From the NCBI RefSeq assembly GCF_041381155.1, contig NC_091144.1:12967544-13031543 (forward strand): DNA of 64,000 nt. Reading direction: 5' to 3'. Each line of letters begins with the position of its first letter. Positions within the stretch are counted from its first letter, which is position 1. Both the position numbers and the translations under genes were made by a program. Source of the DNA: Argopecten irradians. Lineage: Eukaryota > Mollusca > Bivalvia > Pectinida > Pectinidae. Under the pieces are notes generated by a model, which was given only the letters and a program-made list of their open reading frames with translations, was not told where the DNA came from and searched no databases. Of the stretch, positions 7,121 to 57,100 are shown piece by piece.

Positions 7121-7360
7121 TTATCTTTGTGAAGCATCCCTTTGTTTCCGAACCATTTGAGGAAACGTTCTCCCATGCACAGCTTGCATTTTGTGAACAT
7201 TTTGTATGAAATCCTTAAATCGTTTTTGACGATTAAGAGACTTTTGCTGTTTAGCGTACGGTTCTTGTGCATAATGTGTAAGGTCATTCTTAATAAGTGA
7301 TTTCTTATCCTGTTCTGTTTTATGATGAGTAAGTGTTTGTTTATCTTGTTCTGGTTCATG
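7121..7360 (-). CDS. Candidate unique C-terminal tail after the galactosyltransferase repeat array
   Basis: In the frame that reads EPEQDKQTLTQH in the repeats, the sequence leaves the array at about 7320 and stays open through unique codons (KTEQDKKSLIKNDL, then QKRFKDFIQNVHKMQAV, ending RKQRDASQR) to a TAA at 7121-7123. An open unique tail in the same frame as the repeats is what a coding array should show. As assembled it is not joined in frame to the upstream exon, because several units between 7370 and 8700 carry length changes that are not multiples of three. It is basic and Gln/Lys rich with no recognised domain. It may be the true end of the protein in an intact allele, or the open frame may be chance. 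Confidence 0.4.
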   Translation of the reverse strand, partial: HEPEQDKQTLTHHKTEQDKKSLIKNDLTHYAQEPYAKQQKSLNRQKRFKDFIQNVHKMQAVHGRTFPQMVRKQRDASQR

Positions 7361-9178: not shown

Positions 9179-12100
9179 TTTTGTATCTGCATGTGCCTCT
9201 GCGTCGATCTGTTGTACCGGAATAGGTAAAACGTGGTCTCGATTAAACTGTGTGTGTTTTGAAGACTTTTCATCTACACCAGCTATCTTCATATTTTTAG
9301 CCCGTAATGTATCGATGAGGGTTTGAATTTTTTGTTTATGGCCATTCATGCCAAAATTTTGCATCACGGGTTCATTTTGGGCAGACTTAAGCTTTTCCTC
9401 TTTGGGCTGGTTTTCCAGGAAAGGATTTGAACCATGCTTTACATGTCTTTTCCAGGCTGGATTTGCTTTTTTGATTTTCTGATGTGACATGAAATTCCAG
9501 ATATCCTGTCTATTACTGTGTTCTTTAGTCTGATTTTCCATTCGGTACTCTTTTTGAATAGGATACCTTTTTTGACTTGGTGGCGTCTGTTGATTGCTAT
9601 ACGTTTGATTGTGTGCCTGCTCGTGAGGTTCCTGTATTCCTCTCGGGATAACCTCAAGAGTTGGCGCGTCACGTTCCACCAACCTTGTTTGGTTATTTGT
9701 TATACTTTCGTTTTCCGAAGACTGAACTACTAATGGTAATACCACTGGCTCGGCCGACTTCATAGGAAAGAGACGAGTTAAAATTCCAGACACGACCTTC
9801 ATGGAAACAGAAGAGGAATTCAGACTTCGGAATTCTTTTGTAATTGCAGTTATTATGTCATCACCTAACGTATATTTACCTAAGAGATATTTAGCTTTAT
9901 CTATAACTATTTCCTCTAATGCAGGATCTATCGAGTCACTGGACTTGTCACTAGCGCTTGTCCATGGTTGGTACATCCATTCGTCCTGATTTATGTTCGC
10001 CAGTACATATGTGTAGAGGGGTCGTCGTTGTACCTGTAGTGACTCATATTTTATCGTATTCAATCCGTCCTCCTTCCAACGACTTAGAGCGCCCTCCAGT
10101 AGACGTTGTCTAAAAAACACAATATATGGGCAATTAGAAGGAGGATATACCGTTTCGAACCATAGAACCCATTCAGAAGTTGTTTTTTTTTTTAAATAAG
10201 GCGATGAATATTTATTTATTAATGTATTTGTTTTATCAATACACGATATCGTTACTAGTATTTCCTTAGTCATTGTACTTTCAGAGAGTAAATAAATATT
10301 GTTTTCTTTGTTTTCATACTTAATCTGGCATTCTATTTGACCAATACTTTTCTTCATACCACTATAACAAAAATTAAAATATCGTGACGTCACAATAGAG
10401 ACATTGACGTTGCGTATTGATTCGGAAAAAGAACCCCTTGAACAATCACTGGAATGGTAGATTTCAACATACTTTATTGTATCAAACAGATTATAAAATC
10501 AGTTATGAGCATTGATGTCATTATTTTTTTTAATTTCATCGAGGTATGCTACGAGGATTACACAGTGTGCAAACCATCTTTTTCCATACTCCGATGAAAT
10601 AAAAAAAAAGTAATATCAATGCTTAAAAGGGTATCTGTTATGATAATAAAAATGACTAAAATTACCTGTTGTTATTTAAGTTTGAATCTGCTACATGTTT
10701 CAACATACGATAGGAGCTAACATCCGGTGTGTATCTCGTGATGGATATCCCCAGATTTCTTATTCTGATAAAACAATGGTCATACAGGTAAGTTACAGCG
10801 TCAACTTACTCATTCATTTATGCTAACAAAAAAGTTCATAAATTGAAAAATAGCTTAGTAGTTAAGTTTTAGCAAATGGATTTCAGATAGTTTACCACAA
10901 TCAATTGTTTATTAAGTATGGCGATTGGGGTGATAAATTTTCCGTTATCCTCACATATGTTTTTAATTGCATCAGATCAGTATCAGTATAAAAGATTAAA
11001 CGTGTATACCGTCTATACAAATCGTCATCCTCGCCGCCCCAGCCAAAGAATTTGTTTGAATAGCCGTTCACTAGTGTAAATTGATCTTCGCTCATTGCTG
11101 TTACGCCTCCAAAAAGACCCACATATGGAAGTCTAAAACAACATTAAACAATGTAACCTCCTGTGGAAACATTAGTGAGTCTAGAAATGCATGAATTATA
11201 TATTGATTTGCGGATGGATTCATCACTTTTTCAATCAATATACGAACATGCAACGAAACGTAATTATTACTGTACAAATATTTCCGATTAATAAATATCT
11301 AGGGCATCCTTAGCAGATACATGAATCCATAAATGATCGTTATATTTGTATATACATTACTACTCCGTATCATCTTAATGAGTGGTCTTATAAAACAGGT
11401 GGTCTTTATACAGAGGTGATTGCTACGACAGGTTTGACAGTATCACAACTGAGGTTAGACATTGGATATTGTTTATAATATGAATGCGCGATGACTGTTG
11501 TTGTACGCCTTTTACTGAAGGAGTATATCTGGGATTTCTTTTCGCAATTAAACAATCCCCAAACTATTTAAAGCCATGTACCCAATCACTGATGTCATAT
11601 GGCCTGTTTAAACACGGTCAGTGATTTTGGCGAAATTGGGAAAATCTACGAAAAACCAATGATCCAATATTGGCTTGTGGAAGGTTAAGCATATACAAAA
11701 TACAAACTCTTATATGTAGGGCGCACAACATATAAATCAGCTATCGTATTACTCACTCATAACCAAACTTGTCGATGGCAACAGACATGTGTCTGGGATT
11801 CTCAGGACAGGAGTACACGTTATTATCATTTTCCGGGATCATGTCCACATCATGAAAGATAAAGCACTTATAGCCCCGTTTTCTAGCTTCCAGAAACCCT
11901 ATATTCATGCATAGGGCTCTATTAAAGTCGATTTGTGGCGCCTGGTGTTGTTTGAAATGAACAAAAATGGGAGCATACGTATGAGAAACAAGTTGATATT
12001 GGTAAACTCAGATAAAATACAGTTTTAGCAATATGAAAGGTATAAAGTGCATATTCAATAGACATCGGTCTGTTTAACTAATGGATATATCATATTGTTT

Positions 12101-15954: not shown

Positions 15955-16670
15955 TAATACGAAGACAAATATATGTATTATAACAAAATATGAAGACAAA
16001 TATCAGTATTCTAACAAATATGAAGACAAATATCTGTATTCGAACAAAATACGAAGACAATTATCTGTATTCTAACAAAATACGAAGACAAATATCTGTA
16101 TTCTAACAAAATACGAAGACAAATATCTGTATTCTAACAAAATACGAAGACAAATATCTGTATTATAAAAAATACGAAGACAAATATATGTATTCCAACA
16201 AAATATGAAGACAAATATCTGTATTCTAACAAAAGACGACGACAAATATCTGTATTCTAACAAAATACGAAGACAAATACCTGTATTCTAACAAAATACG
16301 AAGACAAATATCTGTATTCTAACAAAAGACGAAGACAAATATCTGTATTCTAATAAAAGACGAAGACAAATATCTGTATTCTAACAAAAGACGAAGACAA
16401 ATATCTGTATTCTAACAAAATACGAAGACAAATATCTGTATTATAAAAAATACGAAGACAAATATATGTATTCCAACAAAATATGAAGACAAATATCTGT
16501 AATCTAGCAAAATATGAAGACAAATATCTGTATTATAACAAAATACGAAGACAAATATCTGTGTTCTAATAAAAGACGAAGACAAATATCTGTATTCTAA
16601 CAAAAGACGAAGACAAATATCTGCATTCGAACAAAATATGAAGACAAATATCTGTATTCCAGCAAAATAG
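15955..16670 (+). repeat. 31-bp minisatellite, left arm
   Basis: About 23 units of 31 bp, consensus GACAAATATCTGTATTCTAA followed by CAAAATACGAA. Variants are mainly TACGAAG against GACGAAG, and TCTAAC against TATAAA. Open frames through it are a product of the repeat. Confidence 0.85.
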
Positions 16671-17094
16671 CATAGAAAGAAATCATATTAATCTTATATC
16701 CACTGAACGTTTTAAATCCGAAGTAATGAATACAGAGTTTTTACGACGGCAGAATTATCACGTGGGTTGTGGTGTGTGAAATACTATCCGCAGATTCTTT
16801 ATTTTTTGGTTGGATATTATTCCATCGTGCACCGCGAACTAACTATTATTAAAGGCACAGAGGTAAATAAACTATGTCGAACAGTAGACATGGACAATGT
16901 GGCGATGAATCATTAGAACAGTTAATCCTAAGGGAGAGAGACTAAAGAACCAAGCACAAGTATGATAGTGTTAATATGCTATAAATACTCCTCTTCAATG
17001 GGAATAACAGGGGAAATATCATCGAATAAATAATACTAAAGCATAATTAATTATTCAAAATATACATCGATTTTAGGATTTCCCCAAAGGGGCT

Positions 17095-19150: not shown

Positions 19151-19917
19151 ACGTTCTATAGTTTAACATCCGATAGTGTCTGTTGTGTGTGAACCTACAT
19201 TACAGATAAAGCATATGGGATACCGTATGGTATCCGCGCGACTCTCATGAGTCATATTTTTAATGCTTAATGAAAGTATTAGAGCAAAACTGTCTATAAG
19301 GATAGACGCTACTATATTATTAAATAGAACACAGGTACAAAAACCATCATCGTTGGCCAATAGACCGCTATACGGTTCACATCCCACTGACAAAGATCAC
19401 AGCCACTGCGTACACCGATCCATATACCGCAAACAACTCCCGATTAAATTACATTGTATTCCGCATTCAGATTCATATACCATAAAATTTCACTATATTT
19501 TTGATGAAATATATTTGCTGTATTATATATATTTATTCGATGATATTTCCCCTGTTATTCCCGTTGAAGAGGAGTATTTATAGCATATTAACACTATCAT
19601 ACATGTGTTCGGTTCTTTAGTCCCTCTCCCTTAGGATTAACTGTTCTACTGATTCATCGCCACATTGTCCATGTCTACTGTTCGACATAGTTTATTTACC
19701 TCTGTGCCTTTAATAATAGTTAGTTCGCGGTGCACGATGTAATAATATCCAACCAAAAAATAAAAAATCTGCAGATAGTTTTTCACACACCACAACCAAC
19801 GTGATAATTCTGCCGTCGTGAAAACTCTGTATTCATCACTGGATATCATGCCATTGAAAAATTAAAATTTAAAACGTTCAGTGGATATAAGATTAATATG
19901 ATTTCTTTCTATGCTAT

Positions 19918-20358
19918 TTTGCTTGAATACAGATATTTGTCTTCGTCTTTTGTTAGAATACAGATATTTGTCTTCGTATTTTGTTAGAATACAGATATTT
20001 GTCTTCGTATTTTGTTAGAATACAGATATTTGTCTTCGTATTTTGTTAGAATACAAATATTTGTCTTCGTGTTTTGTTAGAATACAGATATTTGTCTTCG
20101 TATTTTGTTAGAATACAGATATTTGTCTTCGTATTTTGTTAGAATACAGATATTTGTCTTCATATTTTGTTAGAATACTGATATTTGTCTTCGTATTTTG
20201 TTAGAATACAGATAATTGTCTTCATAATTTGTTCGAATACAGATATTTGTCTTCGTCTTTTGTTAGAATACAGATATTTGTCTTCATATTTTGCTAGATT
20301 ACAGATATTTGTCTTCGTATTTTGTTAGAACACAGATATTTGTTAGAATACAGATATT
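19918..20358 (-). repeat. 31-bp minisatellite, right arm (inverted)
   Basis: About 14 units of the same 31-bp repeat as at 15955-16670, on the opposite strand (CAGATATTTGTCTTCGTATT and so on). The arrays differ in copy number while the unique arm sequence stays alike, as expected for independent expansion after the inversion formed. Confidence 0.85.
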
Positions 20359-21061: not shown

Positions 21062-24000
21062 GCAGATGTTAACTGATGGTCTAAGGAGGAATAAAATGGT
21101 GTTCCATTGGGTCCTAGTCCCGACAATAATTGTATTGTATATCAGCATTAAGATTTTCAAGGTGTTAAATAACTTGGGCCACTAGTCCCGACAATGATGT
21201 TGAATATCAATGTTAAGATTTTCTTGGTGTACCATTGGGTTCTAGTCAATTATATTGTACACCGATGTTAAGTATTTCTTGGTGTTCCAGTGGGTCCTAG
21301 TCCTGACAATAACGGTGTTAGTATATCAATGTTAAGATAGCTTTGGTGTCCAATTGGGTCCTAATGAATGATATTGTATATCAGTGTTAAGATTGTATTG
21401 TTTTCCAGAGGGTCCTAGTCCTAAAAATGATATTTTATATCAATATTAAGTATGTATTTGTGTTCCAGTGGGTCCTAGTCCTGAAAATGATATTTTATAT
21501 CAATATTAAGTATGTATTTGTAATCCAGTGGGTCCTAGTCCTGACAACGATTTTGTACATCAGTGTTAAGTAAGTATTTGTGTTCCAGTGGGTCCTCGTT
21601 CTGAAAATGATGTTGTATATCAATATTAAGTATTTCTTTGTGTTCCAGTGGGTCCTCGTTCTGAAAATGATGTTGTATATCAGTGTTAAGTAAGTATTTG
21701 TGTTCCAGTGGGTCCTCGTTCTGTAAATGATGTTGTATATCAATATTAAGTATTTCTTTGTGTTCCAGTGGGTACTAGTCCTGACAATGATGTTGTATAT
21801 CAGTGTTAAGTATTTCTTAGTGTTCCAGTGGGCACTAGTCCTGACAATGATATTGTACATCAGTGTTAAGTATTTCTTAGTGTTCCAGTGGGCACTAGTC
21901 CTGACAATGATGTTGTTTATCAGTGTTAAGTATTTCTTAGTGTTCCAGTGGGCACTAGTCCTGACAATGATGTTGTATATCAATGTTAAGTATTTCTTAG
22001 TGTTCCAGTGGGTCCTAGTCCTGACAATGATGTTGTATATCAGTGTTAAGTATTTCTTAGTGTTCCAGTGGGCACTAGTCCTGACAATGATGTTGTATAT
22101 CAGTGTTAAGTATTTCTTAGTGTTCCAGTGGGTCCGAGTCCTGTCAATGATGTTGTACATCAATGTTAAGTATTTCTTAGTGTTCCAGTGGGCACTAGTC
22201 CTGACAATGATATTGTATATCAGTGTTAAATATTTCTTAGTGTTCCAGTGGGTCACTAGTCCTGACAATGATATTGTATATCAGTGTTAAGTATTTCTTA
22301 GTGTTCCAGTGGGTCCTAGTCCTGACAATGATATTGTATATCAGTGTTAAGTATTTCTTAGTGTTCCAGTGGGCACTAGTCCTGACAATGATGTTGTATA
22401 TCAGTGTTAAGTATTTCTTAGTGTTCCAGTGGGTCCTAGTCCTGACAATGATGTTGTATATCAGTGTTAAGTATTTCTTAGTGTTCCAGTGGGTCCTCGT
22501 CCTGACAATGATGTTGTATATCAGTGTTAAGTATTTCTTAGTGTTCCAGTGGGCACTAGTCCTGACAATGATATTTTATATCAGTGTTAAGTATTTTCTT
22601 AGTGTTTCAGTGGGCACTAGTCCTGAAACAATGATATTGTACATCAGTGTTAAGTATTTCTTTAGTGTTCCAGTGGGTCCGAGTCCTGACAATGATGTTG
22701 TATATCAGTGTTAAGTATTTCTTAGTGTTCCAGTGGGCACTAGTCCTGACAATGATGTTGTCATCAGTGTTAAGTATTTCTTAGTGTTCCAGTGGGTCCG
22801 AGTCCTGACAATGATGTTGTATATCAGTGTTAAGTATTTCTTTGTGTTCCAGTGGGTACTAGTCCTGACAATGATGTTGTATATCAGTGTTAAGTATTTC
22901 TTAGTGTTCCAGTGGGCACTAGTCCTGACAATGATATTGTATATCAGTGTTAAGTATTTCTTAGTGTTCCAGTGGGCACTAGTCCTGACAATGATGTTGT
23001 ATATCAGTGTTAAGTATTTCTTAGTGTTCCAGTGGGTCCTAGTCCTGACAATGATGTTGTATATCAGTGTTAAGTATTTCTTAGTGTTCCAGTGGGTCCT
23101 CGTCCTGACAATGATGTTGTATATCAGTGTTAAGTATTTCTTAGTGTTCCAGTGGGTCCGAGTCCTGACAATGATGTTGTATATTAGTGTTAAGTATTTC
23201 TTAGTGTTCCAGTGGGTCCTCGTCCTGACAATGATGTTGTATATCAGTGTTAAGTATTTCTTAGTGTTCCAGTGGGTCCTCGTCCTGACAATGATGTTGT
23301 ATATCAGTGTTAAGTATTTCTTAGTGTTCCAGTGGGTCCTCGTCCTGACAATGATGTTGTATATCAGTGTTAAGTATTTCTTGTGTTCCAGTGGGTCCTG
23401 TCCTGACAATGATGTTGTTATCAGTTAAGTATTTCTTAGTGTTCCAGTGGGACTAGTCCTGACAATGATGTTGTATATCAGTGTTAAGTATTTCTTAGTG
23501 TTCCAGTGGGCACTAGTCCTGACAATGATGTTGTATATCAGTGTTAAGTATTTCTTAGTGTTCCAGTGGGCACTAGTCCTGACAATGATGTTGTATATCA
23601 GTGTTTAAGTATTTCTTAGTGTTCCAGTGGGCACTAGTCCTGACAATGTAATCATGTTGTATTTCTTAGTGTTCCAGTGGGCCGTCCTGACAATGATGTT
23701 GTATATCAGTGTTAAGTATTTCTTAGTGTTCCAGTGGGCACTAGTCCTGACAATGATGTTGTATATCAGTGTTAAGTATTTCTTAGTGTTCCAGTGGGCA
23801 CTAGTCCTGACAATGATGTTGTATATCAGTGTTAAGTATTTCTTAGTGTTCCAGTGGGTCCGAGTCCTGACAATGATGTTGTATATCAGTGTTAAGTATT
23901 TCTTTGTGTTCCAGTGGGTACTAGTCCTGACAATGATGTTGTATATCAGTGTTAAGTATTTCTTAGTGTTCCAGTGGGTCCTCGTCCTGACAATGATGTT

Positions 24001-26060
24001 GTATATCAGTGTTAAGTATTTCTTAGTGTTCCAGTGGGTCCGAGTCCTGACAATGATATTGTATATCAGTGTTAAGTATTTCTTAGTGTTCCAGTGGGTC
24101 TAGTCCTGACAATGATGTTGTATATCAGTGTTAAGTATTTCTTAGTGTTCCAGTGGGTACTATCCTGACAAATGATGTTGTATATCAGTGTTTAAGTATT
24201 TCTTAGTGTTCCAGTGGGCACTAGTCCTGACAATGATGTTGTATATCAGTGTTAAGTATTTCTTTGTGTTCCAGTGGGTCCTCGTCCTGACAATGATGTT
24301 GTATATCAGTGTTAAGTATTTCTTTGTGTTCCAGTGGGTCCTAGTCCTGACAATGATGTTGTATATCAGTGTTAAGTATTTCTTAGTGTTCCAGTGGGTC
24401 CTCGTCCTGACAATGATGTTGTATATCAGTGTTAAGTATTTCTTTGTGTTCCAGTGGGTCCTAGTCCTTACAATGATGTTGTATATCAGTGTTAAGTATT
24501 TCTTAGTGTTCCAGTGGGTCCTAGTCCTGACAATGATGTTGTATATCAGTGTTAAGTATTTCTTAGTGTTCCAGTGGGCACTAGTCCTGACAATGATGTT
24601 GTATATCAGTGTTAAGTATTTCTTAGTGTTCCAGTGGGCACTAGTCCTGACAATGATGTTGTATATCAGTGTTAAGTATTTCTTAGTGTTGTTCCAGTCG
24701 TGGGTCACAGTCCTGACAATGATGTTGTATATCAGTGTTAAGTATTTCTTAGTGTTCCAGTGTTCCAAGTTGTCAGTGGTCTTGTGTTCCAGTCCTGACA
24801 ATGATGTTGTATATCAGTGTTAAGTATTTCTTTGTGTTCCAGTGGGTCCTAGTCCTGACAATGATGTTGTATATCAGTGTTAAGTATTTCTTAGTGTTCC
24901 AGTGGGTACTAGTCCTGACAATGATGTTGTATATCAGTGTTAAGTATTTCTTAGTGTTCCAGTGGGTACTAGTCCTGACAATGATGTTGTATATCAGTGT
25001 TAAGTATTTCTTAGTGTTCCAGTGGGCACTAGTCCTGACAATGATGTTGTATATCAGTGTTAAGTATTTCTTAGTGTTCCAGTGGGTCCTCGTCCTGACA
25101 ATGATGTTGTATATCAGTGTTAAGTATTTCTTTGTGTTCCAGTGGGTCCGAGTCCTGACAATGATGTTGTATATCAGTGTTAAGTATTTCTTAGTGTTCC
25201 AGTGGGCACTAGTCCTGACAATGATGTTGTATATCAGTGTTAAGTATTTCTTAGTGTTCCAGTGGGGCACTAGTCCTGACAATGATGTTGTATATCAGTG
25301 TTAAGTATTTCTTAGTGTTCCAGTGGGTCCTCGTCCTGACAATGATGTTGTATATCAGTGTTAAGTATTTCTTTGTGTTCCAGTGGGTCCGAGTCCTGAC
25401 AATGATGTTGTATATCAGTGTTAAGTATTTCTTAGTGTTCCAGTGGGCACTAGTCCTGACAATGATGTTGTATATCAGTGTTAAGTATTTCTTAGTGTTC
25501 CAGTGGGTACTAGTCCTGACAATGATGTTGTATATCAGTGTTAAGTATTTCTTAGTGTTCCAGTGGGTACTAGTCCTGACAATGATGTTGTATATCAGTG
25601 TTAAGTATTTCTTTGTGTTCCAGTGGGTCCTAGTCCTGACAATGATGTTGTATATCAGTGTTAAGTATTTCTTTGTGTTCCAGTGGGTCCTAGTCCTGAC
25701 AATGATGTTGTATATCAGTGTTAAGTATTTCTTTGTGTTCCAGTGGGTACTAGTCCTGACAATGATGTTGTATATCAGTGTTAAGTATTTCTTTGTGTTC
25801 CAGTGGGTACTAGTCCTGACAATGATGTTGTTATCAGTGTTAAGTATTTCGTGTTAGTGGGACTAGTCCTGACAATGATGTTGTATATCAGTGTTAAGTA
25901 TTCTTTGTGTTTCAGTGGGTACTAGTCCTGACAATGATGATGTTGTATATCATGATGTTTATCAGTAAGTACTTCTTTGTGTTCCAGTGGATCCTAGTCC
26001 TGACAATGATATTTTATATCTATGATTGATTTTCGCGGTATTCCATTGGGTCCTAGTCCT
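21062..26060. repeat. 60-bp satellite array of about 80 units
   Basis: The unit reads GTTCCAGTGGGCACTAGTCC, then TGACAATGATGTTGTATATC, then AGTGTTAAGTATTTCTTAGT. Units at both ends (21062-21780 and after 25850) are diverged while the centre is nearly uniform, the usual result of unequal exchange. The main variable site follows GTGGG (TCCT, CACT, TACT, TCCG). The second is TTAGTG against TTTGTG. Because 60 is a multiple of three, long frames stay open on both strands (for example MMLYISVKYFLVFQW per unit). That simultaneous openness argues for a satellite and against a protein. Confidence 0.93.
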
Positions 26061-26204
26061 AACAATGGTATTATATATTAACTTTTTCCTGGGTTTCAAA
26101 TGATATATAAGTTGCACAGCAAAATAGAACCTATATGCCGAAGCACAGTTCAGAATGAGAAAACAGCTTTAAGATGAAGCATATCGAAGCAAGGATATAG
26201 CTGT

Positions 26205-39648: not shown

Positions 39649-42600
39649 CTAGGAGAGTAACATCTGGACGTCCTCGTCATCATCAGGTACACGATCAGCG
39701 GCCAGTCTGGTGTACGACAGTGTCAGCCTGTTGTTCTGTCTGTTCCGCCTCTTCACCTTCATGATCACGATGACGAGGAGAAGTGCGAGAAGTATCGCAA
39801 CAACTCCACTCGCGATCAGACCTCCAACAAACAGCCAGTCGACCTTCTTCTTCTGGTCCGGAACACCGGGTGGATAATGGTTTGTGCTGTTGATAGGGAC
39901 GACAGAACAGGCACTATTGGGGTCGTGTGTGTTCGGTTCATCGTATGGCTGCTCTGGCTTCACACAGTAGTCTCCCTTACAACAACATACTTCCTGTGTG
40001 TTGTTTGCACCAGTTGTGAACTATCACATAAAACAAAATATGTACATTTAGTATATTATCTTATTAGAAGACTTAACTTATTATAGGCAATAGACATACC
40101 CTATACTCTATACAATAAAGCACTCATTCTTTACACATAAAAATGTTTAATGCTTGATACCAACTTTTTTCAAAGTGTTGTCCTAGCTTGGTATATTACG
40201 TTTTTACAGTGTTGTTTTAACTTGGTACTTACATTTTTACAGTATTGTTTTGATTCGATACTTACATTTTTACAGTGATGTTTTGACTCGGTCCTTAAAT
40301 TTTTCCAGTGTTGTTTTTATGCCATGTATAGAATTTTACAGTCAGGTTTGACTCGGTACTTACATTTGTGACGTGTTGTTTTGACTCAGTACTTACAGTT
40401 TTACTGTGTGGTTTGACTCAGTACTTAAATTTTTCCAGTGTTGTTTTAATGCCGTACATACATGTAGATTTTCACAGTGTGGTTTGACTCGGTACTTACA
40501 TTTATAAAGTATTGTTTTAATTCGGTGCTTACATTTTTACAGTATTGTTTTGACTCGGTGCTTACATTTTTACAGTGTTGTTTTGACTCTGTACTTACAT
40601 TTTTACAGTATTGTTTTGACTCTGTACTTACATTTTTACAGTGTTGTTTTGACTCTGTACTTACGTTTTTACACTGCGGCTCTGACCCTGTGACATTGAC
40701 ACACCTGTTGTCAATATCACAGTTATACATCTGAGAGATGTTACCACTCTTTAGGTAGACAGTGCTCTTCATACATGCCACACCTTCAGCTGAACATTCC
40801 CTCTTGCAGCCTAAATTTATCAAAAACAAATTAATCTGATAAAATTGAGTCTAGAACTGTATGTGCCATAAGGTTATATTTTCAGAGAGAGATGCAGTGC
40901 AAGCAGGTTATTCTGAAATTGAGGTCAAATATGAAATGTAGGTCACAGTGATCTGTTTTTGGTATGCAACAAATCATCTCATCTAGACAGAGCAATTAAA
41001 CATACAAAGAATGAAATCCAAATGCCTCATAGTACAGGAGAGAAAGAAAATTTTTTTTTTTTAGCTGAAGTTAAATATTATACAAATATTTCATGGCCTA
41101 CTGTGCTCTAGTTCATAATATTTAACCTGAGGTGGTGGTAATCAACAAATGTTATATTGCACGAGGCCGAAGGCCGAGTGCAATATAATATTTGTTGATT
41201 ACCATCACCGAGGGGTAAATATTATGAACTAGAGCACAGTAACCCATGAAATATTTGTTTTATTACATAATCACCAGTTTTTCAGTTGAATATTATTATA
41301 AAATGAATACGACAATCACTTAACAAAATCATCAGCACCGTACCGTACGGAAAAGCTTCAAATCCTATTGAAGATTGACGTATAAACCACGTACGTCACG
41401 TTGTAACCCCGGTTTGGATGTTTTGTTGTCTTCTTTAACAATATTAGACCTGCATGCAGCCTTTTGATCTAATACATTCGCCGTGTCCGTCCTCTACTCG
41501 ATAAACGTCTACATGACGTGCTTGTTTCGAGATCTATAAAGCTAGCGCGAAATTGAACGTGAACCTTTGTGACGTCATAAAAAATAACTCACTGTTACGC
41601 GCGATTCCTCAGAGTTTTTCTACAAAACTAGACAATAACAGCGAGGTGTTCCTAAAGCCGTGCAATATAACATCTCGAACCGTGCAATATAACGTTTCCA
41701 TGGGAGCGTGCAATATAACTTCGAACCGTGCAATATAACAAGGTTTTATTGAACGGTCGGTGTAATAGTTGAAAATATTATATTTCTTCATATATAGATT
41801 GGTGTAAACAAAGTATGTAATAAATATAAAAATGTAAGTCATAATGACGTAGTTTTGGTACCTGCCGAACATTCTCACCTAAATGTGTGGATTCACAAGT
41901 ATGAAGTTCCAACGCCTTATAATGCATATATGATGATGCTGATGACACTTATCTACACTGTGTGCACACCTATATATAATTCTGTCTATTCTAACAATGT
42001 CTTCAATTTTACATACTGTAAATTAAATAATCGTATCAATTCCTCTAAATCAGGTGGTAATATATAAGCATGTATATCCCCATCAATATGTAACTAATGA
42101 TATAACATCCTAAAATATATACATTGTACAAGCTAACGGTAAAACATCCTAAAATATATACATTGTACCAGTTAACGGTATACCATCATAATATATATAC
42201 ATTGTACAAGCTAACGGTAAAACATCCTAAAATATATACATTGTACCAGTTAACGGTATACCATCATAATATATATACATTGTACAAGTTAACGGTATAA
42301 CATCATAATATATATATACATTGTACAAGTTAACGGTATAACATCATAATATATATACATTGTACAAGCCAACGGTAAAACATCCTAAAATATATATATA
42401 TATATACATTGTACAAGCTAACGGTAAAACATCCTAAAATATATATATATATATACATTGTACAAGTTAACGGTATAACATCATAATATATATACATTGT
42501 ACAAGTTAACGGTATATACATCATAATATATATACATTGTACTAGTTAACGGTAAAACATCATAATAATATATATACATTGTACAAGCTAACGGTAAAAC

Positions 42601-45600
42601 ATCATAATATATATATACATTGTACAAGTTAACGGTATAACATCATATATATATATATACATTGTACAAGTTAACGGTAAAACATCATAATATATATACA
42701 TTGTACAAGTTAACGGTATAACATCATAATATATATATACATTGTACTAGCTAACAGTATAACATCATAATATATATACATTGTACTAGCTAACAGTATA
42801 ACATCATCATATATATATATATACATTGTACAAGTTAACGGTATAACATCATAATATATATATATACATTGTACAAGTTAACGGTAAAACATCATAATAT
42901 ATATATACATTGTAGAAGTTAACGGTATCCATCATATATATATATATATATTGTACAAGTTAACGGTATAACATCATAATATATATATACATTGTACTAG
43001 CTAACAGTATAACATCATATATATATATACATTGTACTAGCTAACAGTATAACATCATAATATATATATACATTGTACTAGCTAACAGTATAACATCATA
43101 ATATATATATACATTGTACTAGCTAACAGTATAACATCATAATATATATATACATTGTACAAGCTAACGGTATACCATCATAATATATATACATTGTACA
43201 TTGTACAAGTTAACGGTATAACATCTAGCTAACGGTATAACATCATACCATATATATACATTGTACTAGCTAACGGTATAACATCATAATATATATATAC
43301 ATTGTACTAGCTAACAGTATAACATCATAATATATATATACATTGTACTAGCTAAAGGTATAACATCATACTATATATATACATTGTACTAGCTAACAGT
43401 ATAACATCATAATATATATATACATTGTACTAGCTAACAGTATAACATCATACTATATATATATACATTGTACTAGCTAACGGTATATAACATCATACTA
43501 TATATATACATTGTACTAGCTAACGGTATAACATCATAATATATATATACATTGTACTAGCTAACGGTATAACATCATAATATATATATATATACATTGT
43601 ACAAGCTAACGGTAAAACATCATAATATATATATATACATTGTACTAGCTAACGGTATAACATCATAATATATATACATTTATAGCTAACAGTATAACAT
43701 CATAATATATATACATTGTACTAGCTAACAGTATAACATCATAATATATATACATTGTACTAGCTAACAGTATAACATCATAATATATATATACATTGTA
43801 CTAGCTAACAGTATAACATCATAATATATATATACATTGTACAAGTTAACGGTATAACATCATAATATATATATACATTGTACTAGCTAACGGTATAACA
43901 TCATAAATATATATATACATTGTACTAGCTAACAGTATAACATCATAATATATATACATTGTACAAGTTAAAGGTATAACATCATAATATATATACATTG
44001 TACTAGCTAACAGTATAACATCATAATATATATATACATTGTACTAGCTAACAGTATAACATCATAATATATATATACATTGTACTAGCTAACAGTATAA
44101 CATAGCTAACGGAATAGCATCATAATATATATATACATTGTACTAGCTAACGGTATAACATCTAGCTAATGGTATAACATCCTACATAATACATATTGCA
44201 CTAAGTGGCACTGACCTTGCAGCTTCATGTTGTTGCCCTCTGAGGTTAGTTGGTAGCAGTGACTTCTGTTGTTTGTGACTGGGGCAGCCACTGGTTTGTT
44301 ACAGTTGTTTCCCTCACAACAATATATGGACACCTGACTCCCATTCATCTGGGCCTGAAACAATACCATCAAAGTAGCAATACAAGAACACTACAATGAA
44401 AGTGGAAACATTTTATTTCAAACAGATAATAAAAAAGACAAATTGGGACTATATCTGGACTCATATGAAATAAAAGTGATCCTACAATGTAACTACATTT
44501 ATGAAAAGTGTGATAAAATTTAAAGCAGTTATTCAATCTTTATTCCATTTAAAAATTTACATTCATGATCAGCACTTAACTCATTTATAGCAGTTACTTG
44601 AAGTTTAATTTATGTATTCACACATTCATGCTAGCTGCAATATTGTAGCTCAAAAGACTTTTTGACAGAAAATTGTTGTCTTTAGAGCTACAATTTGTGC
44701 CTATTACTGCTAATGGAGCAAAGTAATGATTATGCAAACCTTTATAAAACGTTTGTTTGCATTTTTATCGTACTTGTTTGATATCGCTTACCTACTAGGC
44801 AATAAAACTGAACCACATAAAATATCGAATTCTCATTGAGGCATTATTTTTTTACATAATATATATGAAGGTCTTTCTGAAGAGAATTTATACGGCAAGT
44901 CCATAAATTTTGAATTTGACGTCTTGTGAGCGGTACGGTGGGTATTAAGAATGGTAGTTATGTTTGTTTTGGACAAAAATAATATGTAAATGCATGTATA
45001 CGCATAAAATAATTGGAAACCTACAAAAAAGTATAGAAAACTATGCCCGAGTGATTTTCGGAGGCAGTGCTCCACTACGACACATAGGGACCAATTCGTA
45101 CCCGGCCGAAAAGTATAGTAGGCCGGGTACGTATATTCGTTCTAACATTCATGCATGTACAGTATTGAATGACTCTTTTAAAATCAGCATTCTTTTCCAT
45201 CAGTAAGTCAAATTTTCAGCTTCGTAAATTCTAGTACATTGTACATGCAATGTACAAGTTGTATAACAAACTGTCAAGCTTGGTATATACATGTACATGT
45301 AGTCAAATTGAAGCCTCTTTAAAGACCATTGTATGGACAAATGGTCTTAATAGCAAAGTGGAAACTTGGAAGCCAAAGAAAGTGATTAAGATAAGCACAT
45401 GGTCCTTGCAAATACATACAGACATGGCATCACCATACATGGTAGGTGGATTTTACTGTTGAATGAACAAAGTTTACAGTATTATCCCCCAAAGCACCTA
45501 GCTACCTTAATAACTTCATTCAGGGGTTTTCCATTGCAGACTCCATCAAAATCACATGATCTCCAGGTATCCACGGAGGTTTCAATAAAGTGTGGACGAA

Positions 45601-45887
45601 AACGAAGTGTGGTGTCATTGGTGAATGTCAAGCATCGCATCACTGGGGCAGGCGTTGTCACAGAGGGTGTTGTATTAGGAGCAGCTGTTGTTTCATTTGC
45701 AGGTGTTGTTGAGTCCCCAGTTGTGTTGTTTGCCAGGTCCTCGGTGTTGTTTGTCGATGTACTGGACACCATGTTTGGAGGGTGTGACTGACCAGTTAAG
45801 CAGGACTGGTTCATGCCTGGAGAGTTATCAGAGCTATGCCAACAGTAGACATCCCCAGTAGGTCGCGGCTGATCTGTGACTCCAGCA
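39649..45887 (-). CDS. Ly6/uPAR (LU) domain type I membrane glycoprotein, 5' exon missing
   Basis: Four exons by splice signals and phase: 45887-45506, 44354-44216, 40810-40665 and 40020-39649. The first seen exon starts mid-codon, so a signal-peptide exon lies further right and was not found. The order is a Cys pair (VYCWHSSDN, QSCLTGQ), a Thr/Asn-rich mucin-like linker with several N-x-S/T sites, then a first LU module ending in the signature CCEGNNCN across exons 1-2. A second LU module (HCYQLTSEG, GCKRECSAEGVACMKS, NCDIDNRCVNVTG) ends CCCKGDYC in the last exon. A short stalk, one membrane helix (WLFVGGLIASGVVAILLALL), a KVKRRNR stop-transfer and a cytosolic tail ending DDDEDVQMLLS follow. 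Most Ly6 proteins are GPI-anchored, so a true helix and acidic dileucine tail are notable. Ligand unknown. About 345 residues are visible. Confidence 0.78.
40190..40670 (-). repeat. 33-bp array that iterates the splice donor of the Ly6-like gene
   Basis: On the minus strand the exon ends QCKN at 40665 before GTAAGTAC. The 33-bp segment around this junction (CACTGTAAAAATGTAAGTAC...) is repeated about 14 times into the intron. The first five extra GTAAG donors would end the exon at 40632, 40599, 40566, 40533 and 40500, exactly 33 nt apart. The frame stays open across them, adding VSTESKQHCKN or VSTESKQYCKN per step, each creating an N-V-S glycosylation site and (in the first four) one Cys. Farther units are diverged and irregular. 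Confidence 0.85.
41083..41257. mobile_element. Near-perfect palindromic MITE with GGCC apex
   Basis: CAAATATTTCATGGCCTACT...GTGCTCTAGTTCATAATATT pairs with AATATTATGAACTAGAGCAC...CATGAAATATTTG. The apex is GAGGCCGAAGGCCGAG, flanked by GTTATATTGCAC and GTGCAATATAAT. It lies in an intron of the Ly6-like gene. Very similar plan to 17776-17942. Confidence 0.75.
41660..41739 (+). repeat. Four clustered copies of GTGCAATATAAC
   Basis: The 12-mer occurs at 41660, 41682, 41708 and 41728, spaced 20-26 bp, and a near copy in both orientations forms the inner stem of the palindrome at 41083-41257. Clustering of an exact 12-mer suggests a shared element origin or a protein-binding site array. Confidence 0.7.
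42070..44200. repeat. 39-41-bp satellite with embedded AT microsatellite, in a Ly6-like gene intron
   Basis: About 50 units of AACATCATAATATATATACA followed by TTGTACTAGCTAACGGTAT. Unit length changes through the (AT)n run, which varies from about 4 to 9 repeats. Units with AAGTTAACGG dominate the left half and TAGCTAACAG the right. The array begins within about 20 bp of the intron's 5' splice site (donor at 44215). Not coding. Confidence 0.9.
45045..45145 (+). repeat. Dispersed ~100-bp repeat, copy 1
   Basis: GCCCGAGTGATTTTCGGAGG through ACGTATATTCG, including the hairpin ACCCGGCC...GGCCGGGT. An inverted copy at roughly 88% identity ends the window (63892-64000). Non-coding. Confidence 0.65.
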
Positions 45888-48202: not shown

Positions 48203-49788
48203 AGTGTGCCTAACCACAGGGACTTGTAACGTAGGTTGTGAGAAAGTCTGTTGTGTATACATGTGTACTATAGGCCTATATACTATATAAAAGGACAAGG
48301 GAACCAACGGCTCGCTTGGAAGAGGTACACCTGCCTCTACAAAAGTCGCCGGTATTCCGTCAAACATGGATAAATATGTATATATTTAATACTTATATAT
48401 TCTTAAATAAATTTTCGATACGGAAAACACAACTTCAGACACGAAATAATATATTAACATACCTTTATTTCACTATGAACGCGGAAAATGCAGTCAGATT
48501 TCCTCACTGTCGTTTTGCCTGTCCAGTGAAATCTAGGTCAAAGGCACTCATATTCCCTTGTAACAAATTTTGTATGCATTCATTTCACTTTCTGGTGATA
48601 TTTTCCCATTGCAAATACAAATAGGCTATCTCCGATAACTCTTTCATTAATCCAATCCAACAACTAAGCGAGGAATCACACTTTTTTTATCCAGCACTCG
48701 ACTCTTGTTCGTATAATCCGCCATATTGTAATTGATGATGGGTACCTTTTTAGTGTACCCGCCCTTACCCGATACTGCACTGGAATTCTGTACCCATACT
48801 CTGTATAAATTAAGTTTCATGGTTAAGGTTTTTAGAAGTACCTATATTTGAAATACACATATCATTAATTGAAGAATCTAACTTAAGTCGAGACTCTAAT
48901 GTTTTTACTCAAGGACGTATATGAGAAGGATAAGTCACACTGGGTTTTGGGGAAGTCCAAGGCAGGCGCTTTTGTGTTTGTGCACTGACCGTGACGTTTG
49001 GCGACGACTAATTTTCCTTTGATATCCGCCGGCACAGCCTTTTGATGTAGCTTGCGGGTGCGAGGGTTACCGTCTTACTTTCTGAAGCGGTGCTGTCATT
49101 TCATGAGCTGTCGATTTTTTTTAAACGAAAATTTAAGACATATCCCTAAATATTCCGTCTTTAAAGCAAGTAATAAACGTCGTGAAATTTAATAAACTTT
49201 ACAATGGTGTTTCGTTTGACTCGATAAGACAAGTATTTGTTGAGAAAAACGGTTTTTATTCCCCGGTTCATAGGCGTCTCGCGTGGTGTTTAGTAATGTA
49301 AAGAGACAGACACGAATCCTTCTCACTTATAAATCCTTGGTTTTACTTTACCGTTACCACATTAATATTGTAGCTTTTAGTATACAGGCACTGTGTATAT
49401 GGGGTTTCCAGTTCGGGTCCGGGGTACACAATATCCACTCAAACGTGTTTAACCTAGATTTCAGTGGACAAGCAAAACGACAGTGAGGAAATCTGACTGC
49501 ATTTTCCGCGTTCATAGTGAAATAAAGGTATGTTAATATATTATTTCGTGTCTGAAGTTGTGTTTTCCGTATCGAAAATTTATTTAAGAATATATTAGTA
49601 TTAAATATATACATATTTATCCATGTTTGACGGAATACGGGCGACTTTTGTAGAGGCAGGTGTACCTCTTCCAAGCGAGCCGTTGGTTCCCTTGTCCTTT
49701 TATATAGTATATAGGCCTATAGTACACATGTATACACAACAGACTTTCTCACAACCTACGTTACAAGTCCCTGTGTGCCTAACGATGT
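48203..49788. repeat. ~335-bp inverted repeat pair around a 0.9-kb core
   Basis: The left arm 48203-48537 and right arm 49452-49788 are almost perfect complements: both read MEEVHLPLQKSPVFRQTWIN in opposite directions and include ACACAACAGACTTTCTCACA. Identity is about 97%. Each arm's open frame is carried only by the duplication. A palindromic insertion or inverted duplication nested in the 47876-50540 unit fits best. Confidence 0.8.
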
Positions 49789-51408: not shown

Positions 51409-52070
51409 ATTTTTGTACGCCCTTGTATTGACCGAAGTGGCTTTGACTTTTACTTCACTGAAAGTCTTTATGTTTCGATTGAGGTCAGGAAGATTAAAGG
51501 CGGTACTCCAACAATGTTTAGAGGTTTAGTACTACGAGATACTTTTAAATCATTACGTCCGGTCTAAATGCCTATCAAGAGTTTCTCATATATCAAGCAT
51601 CTAACGTTGTTCAATGTCTCTTGACAATGACTAAAGGGGGGATACTGTAAGAGTTAGGGTTCAGTTCACATTTATTTGAAATAAATTTAATAAGTTATGA
51701 CAGTCACATCTTTATGGACTTTATTAAGGAAAGTATTTGCTGATCTAGCTACTTACCTTAGTACACTATAAATGTGTATAATATGGATGAAAAATATCGA
51801 AACCACTAAAAGGTGCACGGATCGTCCTGCCATTCTTCCGTTTTTGTCGCTTATATCCCCAAAAATAATAATAATAATAATAATCAGAGTAATAACCTGT
51901 TGTTTCCTTTCCTTTATTTCCATGGTATTTTTTATTTTTTTAGATGAGACAACTTTATTTCATAAAAATAATGTTTCATTAGGTAAAACAAGAGGAAAAT
52001 ATTCAGAATAAAAATTAGTATTTTTTTGGAGCTTATCGATTTTGAGTTATTTCCCTTTACAGGAAGTGAA
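51409..52070. other. Region upstream of RPL26
   Basis: No gene. The block ACTCCAACAATGTTTAGAGG...CATTACGTCCGGTCTAA at about 51506-51567 recurs in altered form as a small palindrome at 52635-52710. An AAT microsatellite is at 51865-51881. The RPL26 core promoter should occupy the last 100 bases. Confidence 0.4.
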
Positions 52071-54121: not shown

Positions 54122-57100
54122 ATGAAGTTTAACAAGATGGTCACCTCCTCCAGGAGGAAGAACAGGAAGCGCCATTTCAATGCTCCCTCTCATGTCAGGA
54201 GGAAGATCATGAGCACTCCACTATCTAAGGAACTTCGACAAAAGTACAATGTCAGAAGTATGCCTATCAGAAAGGATGATGAAGTACAGGTTGGCTTCTA
54301 CAATTATTTCTCATTTTCTTTTTGCATTATTCTGTAATAATTATATATTTTTTTTATTTTGGAATAATCATAATTCATTTTCTTCGAAAATTTAAGTTGT
54401 TAGGGCTTTAGTTTAGAATAGTAGAAATCTTTAGCTAAAGATAATTAAATTTTCTGCATTTTGCTTCATTTTCAAGTTTTTCTTACTTTCCGATCAAGAT
54501 TTGAATAAGAGAATTGTTGATGATATTCAATTCTTAGATGATTGTGATGATTTTTAAACAATTTGTTGGGTGAAACGGTTTACCCCAGTGTACTTGAACA
54601 TCAGTATAATTCCTTTCGGAAAATTATGTTTTAAACACAAATTTGTGTCTTATTTTAGGTTGTCCGTGGTAATCATAAAAGCCAGCAGATAGGCAAAATT
54701 GTCCAGGTGTACAGGAAGAAGTTTGTTGTACACATTGAAAGAATCCAGCGTGAGAAGGCCAACGGTGCCTCTGTCCATGTCGGAATCCACCCTTCAAAGG
54801 TAACATTCAGCTATAAACTGTCAAAGTTTAACAAGTGTCTGTAAACATTCCTCTTAAATGTTACAGAAATTGTAAAAGTTTAAATTTTCATATTTTCTGT
54901 ATATATTACCTATGGCTTTTAATCCCTACTCAAGCCCTCCAAACTTTATTCTGGAAGTTCAAGTTACGTTGACCTAACCGTTTCATTTTGAAAGTCTTTG
55001 AATGTCACATGATCACTATTGTCTGTTTCAATAACATTAATTTACCTGTATAGCCATATCCATTCAATGTAATATGCATTATATGAAATGCACTGTAGTG
55101 ATCACATGACTGTGAGGGACTTTCAAAATGTCTTCTCAAAGTAGCGACCAAACAAGAAATTGGTCATAAAACGAAATGGTTCTTTGTTTTGAATACATGT
55201 CACTAAATGCTGTGTAGGGAAAGAAAAATAATCGTCACTAGCAACATGTGAGGAACCACCGAACCAGTGCATTCAGGTCATTTCTGTAATAGGCCCTTAC
55301 AAGAAGGAGGTCAGTCGGTCTTGAATTTCCAGAATAACATCCAAACATATAGAGGAGGATTCCAATATCGGTTACCATGGCTTCAGAATACTAAATTCAA
55401 TATGTTGGGAACCATCACAGCTAGTCAAGACAACTTCAAAATTGTAAGACGCTCCTGAATTACGCAGATCAAACATGAAATTTTCAGAAACCAAAATACA
55501 TAATCATAACTGCTCTTAAAAATATCAACACATAATCATTTTCATTATGATTTGTAACATTTTTCAGAGAAAAGAATTCAGGAAGGCATTGCATTTGCTG
55601 TAATGGTTCATGTGTTCAAAACTAGAGTCGCTCAGATCCAGAACAGTTTGTGTTTTGAATGCAATGACAAAGATATAATAATAGCATTAAGTTTTGGATA
55701 TCTTCTGCTTTCTCAAGAAATGTTGAAATATTTGAGAAATACCAATATGATAAATTTGAGGAAATTTAAGAGCAATTTATTCACCTGTCATCTCTAAAAT
55801 CTCTCTTAACAATTAGTTTTGGTTTCTAAATTTACGATTACTCAGTTCTCTTATTGCATTTATGTAGTAAATAAGATTATTATGTCAAACTAGCTGCTTC
55901 AGTGTATCGATTCAATGTTTTATTTTGCTCATGTCATTGTCAAAGAACCCTTCTAAACATGATCATGAAATTTATGTTATGGTCATTTCCAACAAAGGGG
56001 AGATAAATCACTTTGATTCTGGGAGTCTGGTCCATCAATGACCTGACTAACTTACCGCTCAAAGTACATTTGAACTTGATGTTTTAAAGGTGCTCCACCG
56101 CAGACAAAGCATAAACAATATAATTTGTCATGTGGACAGTAATTGATGTTTGATTATGATTTATAAAATATGAAGTGTACTGTAAAGTACATGTAAGTGT
56201 CAGTGTAAAGTAAGTTACTTTTTGTTATTGAAAGGAACTACTGATTAGTCTGCTACTGTATTTAATGAGATTGACCTTTAATATTTCAGTGCTAGAAACT
56301 TGTGAAACTTTTTTAAAACTTATGTCTAAATTCATTATCAGAATATTGGTCTCTTATTATTCTCACAGTTACGATTGTTATGTGCCTTCTAACATGTAAA
56401 CTAAACAATGTTGTTTGTATCTATTATCTAGGCGGCCATTTTGATGTTGTGTTTTTTTCCAATGATATATCCTAACTATTGAATTATAATTTTCAAATTG
56501 GGAACAAGATTGCATGTTCATGTGTAAATACTAAACAGTGATGCAAATTTAACTGTGCTGAAATGAATTTCCAGAACTTTAAATAATACAATTTTCTGAA
56601 ACAATATAATGTGCAGACAATTTTCTGAAACAATATAATGTGCAGACTTATGAAACAATATAATGTGCAGACTTGAGAGTAAATTGACTTGACCCTCTGT
56701 GTTAGTATGGAGAGCTTAATGGCTAGTTTAAAGACATTTTATACCCTTCCAAATATGATTAAAGATTTATTTCATCTTTGACCATTTTCCAACAAAGGGG
56801 AGATAAATCACTTTGATTCTGGGAATCTGGTCCATCAATGACTTGATTAACTTACCGCTCAAAGTACACTTATGATATTTACACAAACTAAATGACAGCG
56901 TTAAATTATGCTATAAAATGCTGTGTCCCATCTCATGCTTTGATTTATCAGCATTTACATCTTACTGAGTGTACTGAGACATGTATGGAACGGCCAGACA
57001 GGATTCAAACACTAGCTGGATTCTGATCGCTGAGCTGCATGATTACAGATGATAAAGTTCAACCTAGCTCAGTACCACTAGTCTACACAGTGAAGCATTG

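What the first reader, a model, noticed from the sequence alone, without database searches (positions are those of the whole stretch)
40446..40810. A 33-nt ladder of in-frame splice donors in a Ly6/uPAR-type receptor gene
The junction of exon 40810-40665 is tandemly repeated into the intron. Six GTAAG donors end the exon at 40665, 40632, 40599, 40566, 40533 and 40500, exactly 33 nt apart, and the frame is open across all six. Choosing a later donor would add 11 residues per step (VSTESKQHCKN type), each with an N-V-S sequon and mostly one extra Cys. A single gene could make a graded series of ectodomain lengths and glycan loads, varying further with repeat number. Sequence, spacing and frame are seen directly; that later donors are used is inference.
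Basis: partly seen in the sequence, partly recalled or inferred. Interest (0 to 1): 0.8.

Follow-up and report, generated by a model that had tools for sequence, protein, structure and literature searches.

The report
Minisatellite copied from a splice junction
In an animal gene for a cell-surface protein, the end of one exon together with its splice signal has been copied about fifteen times into the intron; the first copies could in principle add 11-residue blocks to the protein, but the pattern looks like an ordinary repeat expansion and nothing yet shows that the extra splice sites are used.

Summary
On the minus strand six GTAAG donors end the exon at 40665 to 40500, 33 nt apart, in one open frame that closes at 40448-40446. 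The array runs on to about 40163: 15 near-full units and four more GTAAG sites, all behind the stop. The exon fits a five-exon gene for a 371-residue membrane protein. Each unit resembles the exon's last 27 nt (20/27 for unit 1) plus GTAAGT, so donors, spacing and open frame can all follow from one tandem duplication across the junction. I find no sign of selection for the ladder: donor columns are no better conserved than the rest, and 4 of 7 changes among the in-frame units alter the protein; the numbers are small. Known kin are amphioxus 'mirages' and human ABCA7 and CBS repeats; in ABCA7 one extra unit appears in about 2% of transcripts. Most likely 40665 is the main donor with some in-frame leakage. 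Regulated graded use is untested and not excluded. Ly6/uPAR membership rests on cysteine pattern only.

The parts
51757..51833 (-). Exon A: start codon and signal-peptide-like segment (by eye)
   Evidence: Donor AAG|gtaagtagc, ends in phase 2
45506..45887 (-). Exon B: Thr/Asn-rich stalk and first part of Cys-rich domain 1
   Evidence: Acceptor ...ttgtacag, donor AAG|gtagctagg, phase 0 out
44216..44354 (-). Exon C: CCEGNNCN motif of domain 1 and start of domain 2
   Evidence: Acceptor ...gtttcag, donor AAG|gtcagtgcc, phase 1 out
40665..40810 (-). Exon D: middle part of Cys-rich domain 2, ends ...QCKN in phase 0
40665..40691 (-). Last 27 nt of exon D, the likely source of the repeat unit (20/27 identical to unit 1)
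40163..40676 (-). 33-nt tandem array across the exon D donor: 15 near-full units, 10 GTAAG sites
40500..40664 (-). Five in-frame units, VSTESKQ(H/Y)CKN four times and VSTELKQYFIN; donors end the exon at 40665, 40632, 40599, 40566, 40533, 40500
40446..40448 (-). TAA that closes the frame behind the sixth donor; intron retention or any of the four distal donors gives a 320-residue product without the membrane helix
40230..40499 (-). Distal part of the array with indels, stop codons and a roughly 136-nt higher-order duplication (112 of 138 aligned columns identical)
39649..40020 (-). Exon E: CCCKGDYC motif, juxtamembrane stretch, membrane helix, short tail, stop
   Evidence: Acceptor ...tatgtgatag, phase 0 in

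Best explanation
A short tandem duplication once copied the last 27 nt of exon D together with the first 6 nt of its intron (GTAAGT). The resulting 33-nt unit then spread by slippage or unequal exchange to about 15 copies that fill most of the intron: a minisatellite born from a splice junction (a 'mirage' in the amphioxus literature). Every founding copy carried a donor because the copied segment held one, and the first copies read in frame because 27 nt of phase-0 coding sequence plus GTAAGT makes 33 nt. The original donor at 40665 most likely stays the main one, with some leakage to 40632 and perhaps beyond that adds 11 residues per step without a frameshift. Shown: anatomy, likeness of the exon tail to the unit, gene coherence, frame. 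Inferred: direction of copying, expansion mechanism, donor choice.
For: Unit = exon tail + donor: 20/27 identity to units 1 and 3, a likeness reached by 1 of 63,437 other places on the strand and 0 of 63,974 on the other. Shared intron position: domain 1 (exons B/C) and domain 2 (exons D/E) are both split in phase 0, 11 residues before CC, and no array was reported at the domain 1 junction (nearest 1325 nt away), which points to 40665 as the original donor. Ordinary minisatellite behaviour: units 1-2 and 3-4 are a 66-nt dimer copy (64/66), units 1 and 3 are identical, and a stop-bearing block of about 136 nt is duplicated in the distal part. No donor-specific conservation: donor columns 0.878, other columns 0.877 over the 15 near-full units, 2 partial rows left out. 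Of 7 distinct changes in the in-frame units 3 are silent and 4 alter the protein (P of 3 or more silent without constraint = 0.20). Repeat-rich setting: 24 arrays, merged by hand from the rows, cover 21.5% of the window. Parallels: amphioxus mirages judged not to disturb regular splicing; ABCA7 one-unit retention 2 +/- 1% (the value assigned by the order of a 'respectively').
Against: Donor 40665 is not stronger than its copies, so the donor sequence does not explain why it should win. [quoted passage not shown] In human duplicated genes 66% of intron modifications by boundary repeats have alternative transcripts that keep the repeat in the exon. The outer 18 nt of the exon tail alone match the unit at only 11/18: 91 of 200,000 shuffles in the fixed register, but 193 of 63,455 other places do as well. 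3 silent of 7 is, if anything, above the 23% expected without constraint. No RNA, no second individual and no related species could be examined.
Confidence: 0.7

Rival explanations
1. A working splice ladder: the six in-frame donors are used in graded proportions, giving ectodomains with 0 to 5 extra 11-residue glycosylated blocks, varying also with repeat number between individuals.
For: Six in-frame donors, four of which pair with U1 about equally (-6.8 to -7.1 kcal/mol). Units 1-4 end in C-K-N, so for the first five donors a Cys keeps the same distance to the CCC motif (13 residues between them in the 371-residue form, positions 246 and 260); the fold might tolerate the insert (inference). 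In human ABCA7 one extra unit is retained at about 2%, and alternative transcripts with the repeat in the exon are common in another human set.
Against: No RNA data. No conservation beyond the array average. Each of 4 of the 5 added units brings one more Cys without an evident partner. An open frame is expected from the origin of the unit.
Confidence: 0.13
2. The repeats are plain exon: a distal in-frame donor such as 40500 is the constitutive one and the reader's first donor is not used.
For: Frame is open to 40500 and that donor pairs within 0.3 kcal/mol of 40665. Preference for the more distal of two duplicated sites is described for CBS 844ins68.
Against: Domain 1 has its junction at the place that corresponds to 40665, 11 residues before CC. 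Unit 5 has lost its Cys and carries K-to-I and S-to-L changes.
Confidence: 0.08
3. A switch to a soluble or destroyed product: use of the four distal donors, or retention of the intron, meets the stop at 40448 and gives a 320-residue protein without membrane helix, or a decayed mRNA.
For: All four distal donors and intron retention give the same 320-residue end; the distal donors pair with U1 at -6.8 to -7.3.
Against: The distal part has indels and a higher-order duplication and no sign of constraint was seen; no RNA data.
Confidence: 0.06
4. Assembly artefact: the array was expanded or mis-joined during assembly.
For: Only one assembled sequence was available; tandem repeats are error-prone.
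Against: Units differ in a structured way (dimer copy, distal higher-order copy), and of the ten pairs among the five in-frame units only one pair is identical.
Confidence: 0.03

Closest known systems
Amphioxus 'mirage' minisatellites (Adh3, globins BflGb6 and BflGb9, and similar PGBD5 repeats; passages of PMC3087553 and PMC3902484; Canestro 2002 not held)
   Same: Tandem repeats that span an exon-intron boundary, many units with splice signals, homogenised units and unhomogenised borders, length instability.
   Different: Units of 10 to about 160 bp; some lie at the acceptor side (BflGb6). The passages seen describe no in-frame donor ladder. Regular splicing reported as undisturbed.
Human CBS 31-bp VNTR, c.1444_1467+7(16_21) (passages of PMC2630376)
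   Same: Nearly the same anatomy: by its name the unit is 24 exon nt plus 7 intron nt, repeated 16-21 times across the junction, polymorphic.
   Different: 31 is not a multiple of 3, so an extra unit would shift the frame. Use of alternative donors there (Lievers 2001) is recalled, not read; that paper is not held.
Human ABCA7 intron 18 VNTR (passages of PMC5954066)
   Same: 25-bp repeat whose first GT is the exon 18 donor; the next unit's donor is used in 2 +/- 1% of transcripts.
   Different: As described the array begins at the GT and holds no exon sequence; the extra unit is out of frame; the length-dependent effect is skipping of exon 19.
Variable internal tandem repeats at exon-intron boundaries of human duplicated genes (passages of PMC2812944)
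   Same: Repeats at a boundary with alternative transcripts that keep the repeat in the exon.
   Different: Discussed as a route to new introns in recent paralogs, not as a ladder of donors.

Membership tests
Mirage-type (junction-spanning) minisatellite | Tandem repeat that spans an exon-intron boundary | tested here: met
   Array 40676-40163 covers the donor at 40665; the boundary itself is predicted, not seen in RNA
Mirage-type (junction-spanning) minisatellite | Unit contains exon sequence plus splice signal | tested here: met
   27-nt exon tail at 20/27 to unit 1, plus GTAAGT
Mirage-type (junction-spanning) minisatellite | Homogenised inner units, borders left out | tested here: inconclusive
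   Units 1 and 3 identical and dimer copy 64/66; last unit and exon tail diverged; but diverged units also lie inside the array, at 40461 and 40331
Mirage-type (junction-spanning) minisatellite | Regular splicing undisturbed | not testable with these tools
   No RNA data; no genome held for the window
Mirage-type (junction-spanning) minisatellite | Length polymorphism | not testable with these tools
   One sequence only
Ly6/uPAR (LU) domain protein | Profile match above cut-off | tested here: not met
   UPAR_LY6 8.3 bits against 24.8 and Activin_recp 11.4 against 20.9; domain 1 alone gave only ET module, 15.8 against 25; the full protein gave no LU match; one chance-level chain each in two PDB searches, E 2.3 and 0.12
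Ly6/uPAR (LU) domain protein | Ten conserved cysteines paired 1-5, 2-3, 4-6, 7-8, 9-10 (PMC6600238 passage) | tested here: inconclusive
   Domain 2 has 11 Cys between residues 186 and 267, domain 1 has 6 between 111 and 171; pairing unknown
Ly6/uPAR (LU) domain protein | Asn directly after the tenth Cys | tested here: inconclusive
   Domain 1 has ...CCEGNNCN; domain 2 has ...CCCKGDYCV
Ly6/uPAR (LU) domain protein | Two-exon domain with the intron at the tip of loop 2, generally flanked by phase-1 introns | tested here: not met
   In both domains a phase-0 intron lies 11 residues before CC; domain 1 is entered in phase 2; domain 2 is split by a second, phase-1 intron
Alternative 5' splice site ladder | Use of two or more of the donors in RNA | not testable with these tools
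   No transcripts available

The most novel reading that the evidence does not exclude
The array is a tunable coding accordion: because the founding unit was 33 nt and phase 0, germline or somatic changes in repeat number directly change how many in-frame donors compete. One receptor gene would then yield a population of ectodomains that differ by 11-residue blocks, each with a sequon and mostly a cysteine, placed in the last loop before the CCC motif of its membrane-proximal domain, while the distal stop-bearing donors feed a membrane-free form.
Probability: 0.1. Interest if true: 0.75.

Novelty: new member of a known kind. Interest (0 to 1): 0.34.

Why it matters
Repeats that carry a splice donor are natural tests of how the spliceosome chooses among many near-identical sites. 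Here the unit length keeps the frame, so leakage would be visible as protein, unlike the ABCA7 extra unit, which shifts the frame. It also shows how a minisatellite can be born from a splice junction and offer new coding sequence. If the extra donors are not used, it is one more harmless junction repeat.

Tried and rejected
Considered and dropped: (1) the open frame as evidence of function; it follows from the origin of the unit and is not improbable. (2) The 36-nt array at 7294-9171, which also carries GTAAGT on the plus strand, as a second donor ladder; it reads on the minus strand as a 12-residue repeat within a long open frame. (3) The 41-nt array of the same gene's third intron as a second junction repeat; as reported it starts 35 nt behind the exon C donor and does not include it. 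(4) Related copies: the protein search of viral contigs had 3 pattern matches and none confirmed, the repeat pattern none; no whole genome is held. A scan of six frames for CC-x(3-6)-C[NVD] gave 7 rows: 3 belong to this gene; the other 4 I set aside by eye as lacking a like domain. (5) Rfam: 0 matches at gathering scores. (6) A bacterial promoter and terminator scan has no bearing on an animal gene. (7) GTAAG occurs 147 times in the window against 119 expected from shuffles; 10 of these are this array. (8) The C. elegans minisatellite paper PMC4039745 (abstract and outline) concerns repeats near alternative splice regions, not repeated donors. (9) Structure prediction was not run: the protein is spliced, so it is not read letter for letter from the window as that tool requires.

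The library was searched ten times (one search found no paper). None of the titles and abstract starts listed showed an in-frame donor ladder of this kind; that covers only the open-licence library, those terms and the listed rows.

Full report
What was checked. The minus strand of 39700-42600 was read directly. A script lists every GTAAG between 40810 and 40100: the last exon base before each is 40665, 40632, 40599, 40566, 40533, 40500, then 40397, 40364, 40266 and 40233. The first six are spaced by 33 nt and the frame set by the exon is open across them; the first stop is TAA at 40448-40446. My first translation used the wrong frame. The finding's six donors and their frame are confirmed; the finding missed four further donors and the full length of the array, which a wraparound alignment to a typed consensus traces from 40676 to about 40163 as 15 near-full units (Tandem Repeats Finder reports 40196-40673).

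The gene. Five exons chain without a phase error: A 51833-51757, B 45887-45506, C 44354-44216, D 40810-40665, E 40020-39649, giving 371 residues. This is a prediction from sequence; no transcript was seen. By eye the product starts with a signal-like segment and has a Thr/Asn-rich stalk and two cysteine-rich stretches with CCEGNNCN and CCCKGDYC. A membrane helix near the C terminus gives the best Pfam match of the whole protein, below cut-off (VEGFR-2_TMD, 20.4 bits against 25). Both cysteine-rich stretches are split by a phase-0 intron exactly 11 residues before their CC. This shared intron position points to 40665 as the donor that corresponds to the repeat-free junction of domain 1.

Family. 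The cysteine spacing recalls LU (Ly6/uPAR) and activin-receptor domains, but no profile match passes its cut-off: UPAR_LY6 8.3 of 24.8 bits, Activin_recp 11.4 of 20.9, and domain 1 alone only ET module at 15.8 of 25. Two searches of solved chains gave one chance-level row each. The intron position differs from the tip of loop 2 given for LU genes (PMC6600238 passages). 'Looks like an LU-type receptor' is reasonable; 'is a Ly6/uPAR protein' is not established.

Origin of the unit. The last 27 nt of exon D match the last 27 nt of units 1 and 3 at 20 positions, unit 2 at 19, unit 4 at 18 and unit 5 at 14. Against the consensus of these five units the exon tail scores 19 of 27; 1 of 63,437 other 27-mers on this strand outside the array does as well or better (20), and 0 of 63,974 on the other. 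The outer 18 nt, beyond the obvious match, carry a weaker signal: 11 of 18, reached by 91 of 200,000 shuffles in the fixed register, but 193 of 63,455 other places in the window do as well. In protein terms TGSEPQCKN of the exon stands against TESKQHCKN of unit 1. So the unit looks like exon tail plus GTAAGT, and the frame comes with it. That the exon is the source and the intron the recipient is inferred from the junction of domain 1.

Turnover. Units 1 and 3 are identical, units 1-2 and 3-4 form a 66-nt dimer copy at 64 of 66, and a block of about 136 nt that holds a stop is duplicated in the distal part, 112 of 138 aligned columns. Over the 15 near-full units the six donor columns agree with the consensus at 0.878 and the other 27 at 0.877; two partial rows were left out. 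Seven distinct changes separate the five in-frame units from unit 1: three silent, four altering the protein, none a stop; with no constraint three or more silent of seven has probability 0.20 and no stop 0.65. These numbers are small and cannot exclude weak selection. A random 33-nt unit of this composition is open in a given frame 39% of the time.

Donor choice. U1 duplex energies, with a recalled U1 5' end, are -7.1 at 40665, -6.8 at 40632, 40599 and 40500, -4.3 at 40566 and 40533, and -6.8 to -7.3 at the four distal donors; the gene's other donors give -12.2, -6.2 and -7.6. A rough recalled weight matrix scores 40632, 40599 and 40500 slightly above 40665 (4.93 against 4.12 bits). Predicted products are 371, 382, 393, 404, 415 and 426 residues for the six donors and 320 residues for all four distal donors and for intron retention. 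Because units 1-4 end C-K-N, a cysteine stays at the same distance from the CCC motif for the first five donors, so the fold might tolerate added units; each of these units also adds a cysteine without an evident partner.

Known parallels. Amphioxus genes hold tandem repeats across exon-intron boundaries, called mirages; the authors judge that regular splicing is not disturbed and report length variation and, at Adh3, somatic instability (PMC3087553 passages; PMC3902484 passage). In human ABCA7 the first GT of a 25-bp repeat is the exon 18 donor, and one-unit retention is 2 +/- 1% of transcripts by the order of the sentence (PMC5954066 passages). In human CBS a 31-bp unit named c.1444_1467+7 is repeated 16-21 times, by its name 24 exon and 7 intron nt (PMC2630376 passages). 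[quoted passage not shown] The present array has the CBS VNTR anatomy with a unit length that keeps the frame.

Setting. The window is rich in tandem arrays: 24 arrays, merged by hand from the 46 rows, cover 13,764 of 64,000 bases, and a random point lies within 20 nt of an array edge 2.9% of the time. No genome is held for the window, so neither relatives nor other individuals could be examined, and the species is unknown; the L26 ribosomal protein gene on the plus strand matches the eukaryotic and archaeal L26 family.

Verdict. A real junction-born minisatellite with an intact in-frame ladder of donors that needs no selection to explain it. Most likely 40665 is the main donor. Graded use is a testable possibility at about one in eight.

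Noticed in passing
42094-44181: A 41-nt AT-rich array of about 48 copies in the third intron of the same gene begins 35 nt behind the exon C donor: a second array at the start of an intron, without the donor in it.
   Followed up: partly
7294-9171: 36-nt array of about 52 copies that reads on the minus strand as a repeat QHEPEQDKQTLT, continuous with a long open frame 8537-10498; the reading frame changes further along the array. The non-repeat part 9172-10498 has no Pfam match.
   Followed up: partly
15956-17032 and 19530-20343: Long inverted arms (311 nt at 96%, others from 88 to 96%, the 25 longest of 66 pairs seen) that contain 31-nt tandem repeats on both sides of about 2.5 kb, like a transposon with repeat-filled terminal inverted repeats.
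   Followed up: partly
48274-48624 (+) and 49354-49716 (-): Nearly the same open frame in opposite orientation on both sides of about 0.7 kb inside the first intron of the gene, an inverted-repeat element.
   Followed up: no
21182-26078: Nearly 5 kb of 60-nt repeats, open over long stretches on both strands.
   Followed up: no
54122-54799: Two exons of a ribosomal protein L26 gene on the plus strand (Pfam Ribosomal_L26, 103 bits), a divergent neighbour of the gene.
   Followed up: partly
193-2790: Consecutive minus-strand open frames, possibly of one broken or intron-containing gene; 3 of the 5 frames were scanned and none reached a Pfam cut-off.
   Followed up: no
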